Of a stretch of DNA of 64,000 bases, positions 12,360 to 13,181 are shown in pieces. Both the position numbers and the translations under genes were made by a program. Under the pieces are notes generated by a model. It saw only the letters and a program-made list of their open reading frames with translations. It did not search any database and was not told where the DNA came from. Location of the stretch: positions 1 through 64,000 of the forward strand of contig JAJPHV010000114.1 of the NCBI GenBank assembly GCA_021325095.1, written 5' to 3'. Origin of the DNA: Chloroflexota bacterium (GTDB lineage Bacteria; Chloroflexota; Anaerolineae; Aggregatilineales; UBA2796). The first letter of the stretch is position 1, and each line of letters begins with the position of its first letter.

Positions 12360-12720
12360 GCCCAGGCTGGTCGGATGGTCGCGCCCCGTTCACCGGGGTG
12401 AGGAAAGTCCGCGCTCCGTAGAGCACGGTGCTGGCTAACAGCCAGGCGAGGCAACTCGACGGCAGAGTGCCACAGAGAAGTGTATTGCCCCGCAAGGGGC
12501 GAGGGTGAAACGGTGGCGTAAGAGGCCCACCAGCGCTGCCGGTGACGGCAGCGGCTAGGCAAACCCCACCGGGAGCAAGGCCAAGCAGAAGCGAGGGGCT
12601 GCTCGTCCCGTTACCAGCTTCGGGTAGGCTGCACGAGACGGCAGGTAACTGCCGCCCTAGAGAGATGACCATTACCCTGCACCGCAGGGAACAGAACGCG
12701 GCTTATAGATCAGCCTGGGC
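12360..12720 (+). ncRNA. rnpB: RNase P RNA, bacterial type A
   Basis: Catalytic RNA that matures tRNA 5' ends. The terminal helix P1 is visible as GCCCAGGCTG (12360-12369) with CAGCCTGGGC (12711-12720). The P4 5' strand region reads GAGGAAAGTCCGCGCTCC (12400-12417), the family signature. The 3' core has AGAACGCGGCTTATAGA (12693-12709). The internal GGCAGGTAACTGCCGCCCTA stretch, followed by GAGATGACC, matches the segment that carries the tRNA-CCA-binding loop and downstream junction in type A RNAs. A possible -10 TACAAT lies at 12347-12352, with only a weak -35. It is convergent with the split tRNA-fMet gene, whose 5' end it would process. Confidence 0.95.
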
Positions 12721-12754
12721 TTCTTGAGGCAGAACATCCAGGGGGCGCACCCGG

Positions 12755-12784
12755 AAACAAAAACTGGCATCTCGTCGATGCCAG
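12755..12784 (-). terminator. Rho-independent terminator of tRNA-fMet (shared gap with rnpB)
   Basis: Perfect 8-bp stem CTGGCATC (12764-12771) and GATGCCAG (12777-12784) with a 5-nt loop. On the minus strand it is followed by TTTTTGTTT, a good T-tract just after the tRNA-fMet gene. On the plus strand the tail is only TCCTTT, so rnpB may also use it, but weakly. Confidence 0.8.
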
Positions 12785-12796
12785 TCCTTTGAGCAG

Positions 12797-13145
12797 TTGC
12801 GGGGGTAGGATTCGAACCTACGACCTCCGGGTTATGCATACCACTTCAGCTTTCGCTGCCTGTTTGCACAGTTCGTGGTCTGGACTTTCCCTTCATCTTT
12901 CGGCTGTTGGGGGCCGCGAAGATGCCTGCCATCAAGTCTCTACACCTTCTCCGCCAACGCTGAACGTTGTTGGAGCTTGGCTCGGGGTTACCCCGCTAAC
13001 GGCTTCCCCGACTTTGACAGAAAATCGCACGCCAGTTTCCTCGCGTGCAGCCCACTGTGAGATTAACGCCCTTCGCGGAATTGGGTGGGTGTACTGTTAA
13101 CCTCACGGAATTGAGCCCGACGAGCTGCCACTGCTCTACCCCGCG
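12797..13145 (-). tRNA. Initiator tRNA-fMet(CAU), interrupted by a group I intron
   Basis: Two exons, 13145-13114 (32 nt) and 12836-12797 (40 nt), join into an initiator tRNA. The acceptor stem is CGCGGGG with CCCCGCA, leaving the C1-A72 mismatch that marks bacterial initiators, and the discriminator is A73. The anticodon stem carries three consecutive G-C pairs (TCGGG with CCCGG), also an initiator hallmark. The joined loop is CTCATAA, with anticodon CAT. The T arm is GTAGG-TTCGAAT-CCTAC and the D arm GAGC-AGTGGCA-GCTC. CCA is not encoded. The intron sits between T33 and C34. The gene would be silent without splicing, and it is the only initiator tRNA in the window. Confidence 0.95.
12837..13113 (-). 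ncRNA. Group I intron (IC3-like), 277 nt, no ORF
   Basis: Conserved core elements are all visible on the minus strand. P4 is CGGGG (13010-13006) with CCCCG in the Q-like TAACCCCGAGCCAAGC (12990-12975). P5 is CCG-ttag-CGG. P6 is CTCC...GGAG. P7 is GACTT (12938-12934) with AAGTC (12887-12883), flanked by the R-like GGTGTAGAGACTTGATGG and S-like GGAAAGTCCAG. P9 closes with ACCAC and GTGGT. The intron ends in G (omega-G) and exon 1 ends in T, as required. A guide segment GTG-a-GGTT (13103-13096 region) can pair GGCU of exon 1 (P1, G-U at the splice site) and CAU of exon 2 (P10). The order and wording resemble cyanobacterial tRNA introns. No endonuclease gene fits in it. Confidence 0.93.
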
Positions 13146-13152
13146 ACTGAAG

Positions 13153-13181
13153 AGTATACCAGCCCGACTCCCGCTTGTAAA
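13153..13181 (-). promoter_or_regulatory. Promoter of the split tRNA-fMet gene
   Basis: On the minus strand, TTTACA (13181-13176) and TATACT (13158-13153) are 17 bp apart, each matching 5 of 6 consensus bases. The predicted start is within a few bases of the tRNA 5' end at 13145. This separates the tRNA transcript from the upstream SpoIIE-family gene. Confidence 0.75.

What the first reader, a model, noticed from the sequence alone, without database searches (positions are those of the whole stretch)
12797..13145. Initiator tRNA gene split next to the anticodon by a group I intron
The minus strand holds tRNA-fMet(CAU) exons at 13145-13114 and 12836-12797 with 277 nt between T33 and C34. The joined tRNA has initiator marks (C1-A72 mismatch, three G-C pairs in the anticodon stem). 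The insert shows P4, P5, P6, P7 and P9 pairings with Q-, R- and S-like core strings, T before the 5' splice site and omega-G at the 3' end. Group I introns in the anticodon region of tRNA-fMet are known from cyanobacteria; this genome looks like Chloroflexota. A lone interrupted initiator tRNA would make all translation start depend on intron splicing.
Basis: partly seen in the sequence, partly recalled or inferred. Interest (0 to 1): 0.92.

Follow-up and report, generated by a model that had tools for sequence, protein, structure and literature searches.

The report
Self-splicing intron in initiator tRNA gene
The only gene found in this Chloroflexota genome for the tRNA that starts every protein is interrupted by an intact self-splicing group I intron, a kind described since 1994 in cyanobacteria and here traced at the same position in about 14 bacterial phyla, so it is real and well supported but not a new kind of thing.

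Summary
On the minus strand a tRNA-fMet(CAU) gene (exons 13145-13114 and 12836-12797) is split between U33 and C34 by 277 nt. ARAGORN in intron mode calls it independently. A covariance model built from 39 relatives without the window scores it 114 bits (E 3e-25). Thirty-nine aligned introns show strong covariation in P2, P3, P6a, P8, P9 and P9b. P1 places a U.G pair at the 5' splice site, and the intron ends in omega-G. A same-family relative carries the joined tRNA letter for letter, uninterrupted. No intact tRNA-fMet was found elsewhere in the 92.6%-complete MAG. Introns at this fMet site occur in about 14 phyla, and 50 of 396 genomes sampled in the window's class carry introns of this family. 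A Chloroflexota relative's fMet intron encodes an I-Ssp6803I-type homing endonuclease; the window's encodes none. The window intron groups with fMet introns of other phyla, not with its own genome's Ile2 intron. Verdict: a real, probably essential, new member of a known kind. Splicing itself is inferred, not shown.

The parts
13153..13181 (-). Promoter: -35 TTTACA, 17-nt spacer, -10 TATACT with TG before it
   Evidence: Consensus scan, 10 of 12 matches, 1 found against 0.2 expected; the same TTTACA...TATACT layout precedes tRNA-fMet in same-family genomes
13114..13145 (-). 5' exon of tRNA-fMet, nucleotides 1-33 (acceptor strand, D arm, 5' anticodon stem, C32 U33)
   Evidence: Sequence; ARAGORN intron mode; identical to the uninterrupted gene of G002
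12837..13113 (-). 277-nt group I intron, starts CA, ends in omega-G (12837)
   Evidence: RF00028 34.9 bits; model R1 114.2 bits, E 3.2e-25; covariation
13057..13106 (-). P1 extension hairpin GUGAGGUUAAC/GUUAAUCUCAC inside the P1 loop; the equivalent place holds the endonuclease ORF in long relatives
   Evidence: Fold of the single sequence; ORF position in L152
13049..13054 (-). Internal guide sequence UGGGCU: pairs exon GGCU (U33.G at the splice site) and intron CA; after step 1 it can pair 3'-exon CA(U) as P10
   Evidence: Fold; GGGC conserved in 76 of 77 fMet introns and all Ile2 introns examined
13027..13048 (-). P2 hairpin with GAAA loop
   Evidence: All 9 pairs show changes on both sides among relatives, 96.6% of cells paired
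13015..13020 (-). P3, 5' strand CUGUCA (3' strand UGGCAG at 12931-12926)
   Evidence: 94.9% of cells paired, 4 pairs with double changes; RNAalifold consensus
12982..13011 (-). P4-P5: UCGGGG/CCCCGA and GCC/GGU
   Evidence: 98.6% of cells paired; fold
12944..12981 (-). P6-P6a-P6b, including GCC/GGU and CUCC/GGAG
   Evidence: P6a 99.4% of cells paired, all 4 pairs with double changes
12935..12940 (-). P7, 5' strand G-A(bulge)-GACU, expected guanosine site; 3' strand AGUCC at 12886-12882
   Evidence: 100% of cells paired; one compensatory UA to CG change, in L065
12894..12924 (-). P8: CAUCUU/AAGAUG
   Evidence: 93.3% of cells paired for the main helix, 3 pairs with double changes
12840..12879 (-). 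P9 ACCAC/GUGGU with hairpins P9a (CUGU GCAA ACAG) and P9b (CAGC GAAA GCUG)
   Evidence: P9 89.7% and P9b 98.1% of cells paired, with double changes
12797..12836 (-). 3' exon of tRNA-fMet, C34 to A73 (CAU anticodon, T arm, A72); CCA not encoded
   Evidence: Sequence; ARAGORN; identical in G002
12755..12785 (-). Terminator-like hairpin ACUGGCAU/AUGCCAGU followed by a T-run
   Evidence: Read directly from the sequence; not reported by the consensus scan; hairpin plus T-run also follows tRNA-fMet in relatives

Best explanation
This is the genome's working initiator tRNA gene carrying an intact group I intron of the bacterial tRNA-fMet intron family. The precursor is transcribed from its own promoter. 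The intron folds into the P1-P9 ribozyme, and P1 pairs exon GGCU with the guide UGGGCU so that U33 forms a U.G wobble. A guanosine bound in P7 attacks after U33. The freed 3'-OH of U33 then attacks after omega-G, joining U33 to C34 and releasing the intron. Ends are then processed (RNase P, 3' trimming, CCA addition). The family moves between genomes by homing into the conserved anticodon-arm site; this copy has no endonuclease gene and is now inherited passively or cross-mobilised. Shown here: anatomy, homology, covariation, occupied and empty sites in relatives, no other fMet in the assembly. Inferred: splicing, its chemistry, essentiality, mobility.
For: ARAGORN intron-mode call. Model without the window: 114.2 bits, E 3.2e-25. 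Covariation: 95.0% of cells paired (shuffled 83.9%, slid 32-44%), 289 double-change cells (shuffled 87, slid 32-60). The single-sequence fold independently gives P1 with the splice-site U.G, P2, P4, P5, P6, P8 and P9; z -3.5. GGGC guide in 76 of 77 fMet introns and a terminal G in all. Letter-identical uninterrupted tRNA in same-family G002; only interrupted copies in G005 and in G028 (97% complete, 20 contigs). Promoter. Homologous endonuclease in the fMet intron of a Villigracilaceae genome: PF11645 E 2.4e-52, PDB 2ost E 5.3e-65. Tree: the window intron lies among fMet introns of Nitrospirota and others; pairing it with its own genome's Ile2 intron is rejected, p-AU 0.004.
Against: No RNA-seq or splicing assay was available. 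The Rfam general model score (34.9) is below its gathering cut-off (50). P2 holds one G-G mismatch. The MAG is 92.6% complete with 6.4% contamination, so an unassembled intact tRNA-fMet cannot be excluded. The order of lateral transfers is weakly resolved on about 200 columns; vertical inheritance with other Chloroflexota is not rejected (p-AU 0.066 for all nine, 0.28 for the nearest four).
Confidence: 0.94

Rival explanations
1. A decayed extra copy: the true initiator tRNA gene is intact elsewhere and this locus is a relic whose intron need not splice.
For: The MAG is incomplete (92.6%, 153 contigs).
Against: No other fMet by DNA search or among 41 tRNA hits. Promoter, complete exons and ribozyme core are intact. 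G028 (97%, 20 contigs) and G005 also have only interrupted copies, and intact-gene relatives show one strong full-length match each.
Confidence: 0.05
2. The intron was copied within this genome between tRNA-Ile2 and tRNA-fMet by reverse splicing, since both sit at the same place in a CAU anticodon loop and share guide and core.
For: Same insertion position, same GGGC guide, same core strings. One Ile2 intron (G007) falls among fMet introns in the tree.
Against: The window intron is 76-81% identical to fMet introns of other genera and phyla but 67% identical to its own genome's Ile2 intron. Joining the two is rejected, p-AU 0.004. An older jump between the two genes is not excluded (p-AU 0.09 for the window with all Ile2).
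Confidence: 0.08
3. A protein-spliced (archaeal bulge-helix-bulge type) tRNA intron or another non-group-I insertion.
For: Position next to the anticodon resembles archaeal tRNA introns in general (PMC4033280).
Against: 277 nt with complete group I helices, P7 with bulged A, U.G splice site, omega-G, and high-scoring covariance match. No group II match in Rfam for this stretch.
Confidence: 0.01
4. Assembly or binning artefact: the contig is chimeric or from a contaminant.
For: Contamination estimate 6.4%.
Against: The same arrangement occurs in several independently assembled Chloroflexota genomes with different intron sequences, and the joined exons equal the same-family tRNA.
Confidence: 0.02

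Closest known systems
Group I intron of cyanobacterial tRNA-fMet (Synechocystis PCC 6803, Gloeobacter; Biniszkiewicz 1994 and Paquin 1997 as cited in PMC8450103; I-Ssp6803I endonuclease, PMC1995217)
   Same: Same gene. Cyanobacterial loci retrieved here have the same U33/C34 site, guide, P2 with a GAAA-type loop, core and omega-G; up to 80.6% identity to the window intron.
   Different: Different phylum; no endonuclease ORF in the window copy; the window intron groups (without strong support) with Nitrospirota introns.
Group I introns of bacterial tRNA-Ile2(CAU) (Acidovorax, Burkholderia, PMC8450103; Azoarcus pre-tRNA-Ile ribozyme, PMC3984707)
   Same: Same ribozyme type in another CAU tRNA; this genome's Ile2-like gene carries one too (L048).
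   Different: A different host gene, and in the tree a mostly separate clade. Whether the Azoarcus intron sits at the same nucleotide was not tested.
Group I introns of tRNA-Leu(UAA) in cyanobacteria and plastids
   Same: Small self-splicing introns in a tRNA anticodon arm.
   Different: Different host gene. The majority of bacterial and plastid tRNA introns are reported at 37/38 (PMC4033280), against 33/34 here.

Membership tests
Group I introns | Conserved P3-P8 core with P7 pseudoknot | tested here: met
   R1 hit 114.2 bits; P3, P4, P6, P7, P8 paired in 93-100% of cells with covariation
Group I introns | P1 with U.G at the 5' splice site | tested here: met
   Single-sequence fold pairs exon GGCU with guide UGGGCU, U33 opposite G; guide GGGC in 76 of 77 fMet introns
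Group I introns | Terminal guanosine (omega-G) | tested here: met
   G12837; all 81 fMet and 10 Ile2 introns extracted end in G
Group I introns | Rfam RF00028 gathering score | tested here: inconclusive
   34.9 bits against 50, but E 2.6e-7 over the full model length; the family-specific model is decisive
Group I introns | Guanosine-initiated self-splicing | not testable with these tools
   Needs an in vitro splicing assay
tRNA-fMet intron family (cyanobacterial type) | Insertion between U33 and C34 of tRNA-fMet | tested here: met
   Same junction in the window and in fMet introns of about 14 phyla, including 35 cyanobacterial loci
tRNA-fMet intron family (cyanobacterial type) | Common descent with fMet introns rather than other tRNA introns | tested here: met
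   Placed among fMet introns; pairing with its own genome's Ile2 intron rejected, p-AU 0.004. Joining it with all Ile2 introns is not rejected at 0.05 (p 0.09)
Subgroup IC3 | IC3 peripheral and core signature | not tested
   No subgroup-specific model at hand; resemblance to bacterial tRNA introns only
Mobile (homing) intron | Encoded homing endonuclease | tested here: not met
   No minus-strand ORF of 60 aa or more within the intron; relatives such as L152 do carry one
Initiator tRNA | C1-A72 mismatch, three G-C pairs in the anticodon stem, CAU | tested here: met
   Sequence; identical to the uninterrupted gene in G002

The most novel reading that the evidence does not exclude
Splicing of this intron is a control point. 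Because a group I intron needs free guanosine/GTP and Mg2+, supply of the only initiator tRNA (and, through the second intron, of the AUA-decoding tRNA-Ile2) would follow the cell's GTP state. That could explain why introns are kept at these two sites in so many lineages after loss of the endonuclease gene.
Probability: 0.05. Interest if true: 0.8.

Novelty: new member of a known kind. Interest (0 to 1): 0.38.

Why it matters
An essential tRNA with no backup found in the assembly, interrupted by a ribozyme, makes all protein synthesis depend on RNA self-splicing. The wider result is that this insertion is not a cyanobacterial oddity: it recurs at the same nucleotide in about 14 phyla and is common in this class, often invisible to standard annotation (ARAGORN in default mode and Rfam at its cut-off both miss the window copy). 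Genomes reported as lacking tRNA-fMet or tRNA-Ile2 should be rechecked. Co-occurrence with a homologous intron in tRNA-Ile2 allows a test of how introns move between tRNA genes.

Tried and rejected
Pairing the exon with a guide directly after the splice site (GGUU at 13102-13099) was tried first by hand; it did not hold across relatives, whereas the downstream guide UGGGCU does. Recent copying between the two tRNA genes of this genome was considered and rejected. Synteny of fMet loci with the window's neighbours (PP2C-type phosphatase, aspartokinase, RNase P RNA) was not found in the short loci of relatives. Several pattern hits proved not to be introns (tRNA-fMet-like arrays in Marinobacter, Shewanella and others). 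The 1994, 1997 and 2025 key papers are not in the library, so they are cited through other papers.

Full report
OBSERVATION. The minus strand reads CGCGGGGTAGAGCAGTGGCAGCTCGTCGGGCT (13145-13114), then 277 nt, then CATAACCCGGAGGTCGTAGGTTCGAATCCTACCCCCGCAA (12836-12797). The joined tRNA has C1 opposite A72 and three G-C pairs in the anticodon stem, the marks of an initiator. Its 72 letters are identical to an uninterrupted gene in same-family genome G002. The gene has its own promoter (TTTACA-17-TATACT) and a hairpin plus T-run downstream (read directly; not reported by the scan). RNase P RNA is the convergent neighbour at 12363-12721.

THE INSERT IS A GROUP I INTRON. Rfam RF00028 matches over its whole length at 34.9 bits, E 2.6e-7, below the gathering score. 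I extracted 39 related introns, built a covariance model without the window, and searched the window: 114.2 bits, E 3.2e-25. On an alignment of 39 introns including the window, the named structure keeps 95.0% of cells paired. It has 289 cells changed on both sides, against 87 in shuffles and 32-60 when partners are slid. P2, P6a and P9b covary at every pair; P7 has a compensatory change (UA to CG in L065). The window sequence folded alone gives P1, P2, P4, P5, P6, P8 and P9. In that fold exon GGCU and intron CA pair with UGGGCU at 13054-13049, so U33 forms the U.G wobble expected at a group I 5' splice site. The same guide can pair the 3' exon's CA(U) after the first step. GGGC is conserved in 76 of 77 fMet introns and in the Ile2 introns, 62 of 77 fMet introns begin with CA, and all end in G.

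SOLE COPY. A DNA search of the MAG (6.58 Mb, 153 contigs, 92.6% complete, 6.4% contaminated) finds only the two exons at full strength. Among 41 tRNA hits the only other CAU gene is an elongator Met, L019. In relatives the site is variably occupied: eight same-family genomes have an uninterrupted gene. G005 of the same family and G028 (97% complete, 20 contigs), G044 and G098 of the same order have only interrupted full-strength copies; G044 also holds a degenerate 3' half.

SECOND INTRON. The genome carries another group I intron at G000:C129:207171-207385 (51.5 bits), L048 2111-2421, splitting a tRNA that reads as tRNA-Ile2(CAU) at the same U33/C34 position beside tRNA-Gly and tRNA-Pro. ARAGORN mislabels it Phe. 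The Ile2 assignment is by sequence resemblance and by elimination, not by a dedicated model. Thus two of the three CAU tRNAs of this genome appear to depend on splicing.

DISTRIBUTION. By record titles they fall in Cyanobacteriota, Bacteroidota, Chloroflexota, Omnitrophota, Nitrospirota, Thermodesulfobacteriota, Patescibacteria (Uhrbacteria), Vulcanimicrobiota, Actinomycetota, Pseudomonadota, Armatimonadota, Chlamydiota, Melainabacteria and Planctomycetota. Single-MAG phyla need confirmation. In the window's class 50 of 396 sampled genomes have a model hit; of 30 loci examined, at least nine are in tRNA-fMet and most others in Ile2. About a quarter of the fMet introns exceed 380 nt. The ORF of one, from a Chloroflexota (Villigracilaceae) genome, is a PD-(D/E)XK endonuclease (PF11645, E 2.4e-52) related to PDB 2ost (E 5.3e-65), which I know to be I-Ssp6803I. 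The window intron has no such ORF.

DESCENT. On about 200 core columns the window intron lies among fMet introns of Nitrospirota, Planctomycetota, Armatimonadota and other Chloroflexota; nine of ten Ile2 introns form their own clade. Pairing the two introns of this genome is rejected (p-AU 0.004). A single Chloroflexota fMet clade is disfavoured but not rejected (p-AU 0.066), nor is one with the nearest Chloroflexota (0.28). The best reading is spread at one site across phyla by homing, with later loss of the endonuclease gene; the direction and number of transfers are open.

COMPARISON. [quoted passage not shown] A 2025 preprint on tRNA introns of Patescibacteria exists but is not held (cited in PMC12641178). 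In the open papers searched I found no description from Chloroflexota. The finding is therefore a new member of a known kind. The breadth across phyla and the fMet plus Ile2 pair are the more interesting parts.

NOT SHOWN. Splicing, its rate, its guanosine dependence and essentiality are inferred from anatomy and homology.

Noticed in passing
L048 2111-2421 (G000:C129, minus): Second group I intron of the same genome, in a tRNA-Ile2(CAU)-like gene at the same U33/C34 position; ARAGORN mislabels it tRNA-Phe.
   Followed up: yes
L049, L054, L056 (G023, G042, G033): Group I introns inside what reads as a thyX (flavin-dependent thymidylate synthase) gene, HRHTSPFEMVEFKFRVRAP before the intron, in same-order Chloroflexota.
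   Followed up: no
L052 (G010) and L062 (G001): Group I introns in what look like tRNA-Arg genes in same-family genomes, a third host tRNA for such introns in this lineage.
   Followed up: no
L103, L126, L166, L114, L174, L072 (Marinobacter, Gynuella, Oleiphilaceae): Next to intact tRNA-fMet genes lie copies whose 5' half equals tRNA-fMet up to GGGCT but continue into a segment that is the reverse complement of the fMet anticodon arm (ACCTTCGG..TTATGAGCCCGAC); possibly an antisense or decoy RNA.
   Followed up: partly
L087, L105, L115, L144, L157, L108 (Catenovulum, Shewanella, Psychrosphaera, Marinomonas): tRNA-fMet arrays contain copies with a rewritten, longer anticodon arm lacking CAU, sometimes repeated exactly.
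   Followed up: partly
L034 (G000:C113:886-944): A tRNA-like stretch with GCG in the anticodon position and a broken acceptor stem on a 5-kb contig.
   Followed up: no
window 12363-12721 (+): RNase P RNA lies directly downstream of the tRNA-fMet gene, convergent; this adjacency was not seen in the short loci of relatives.
   Followed up: partly
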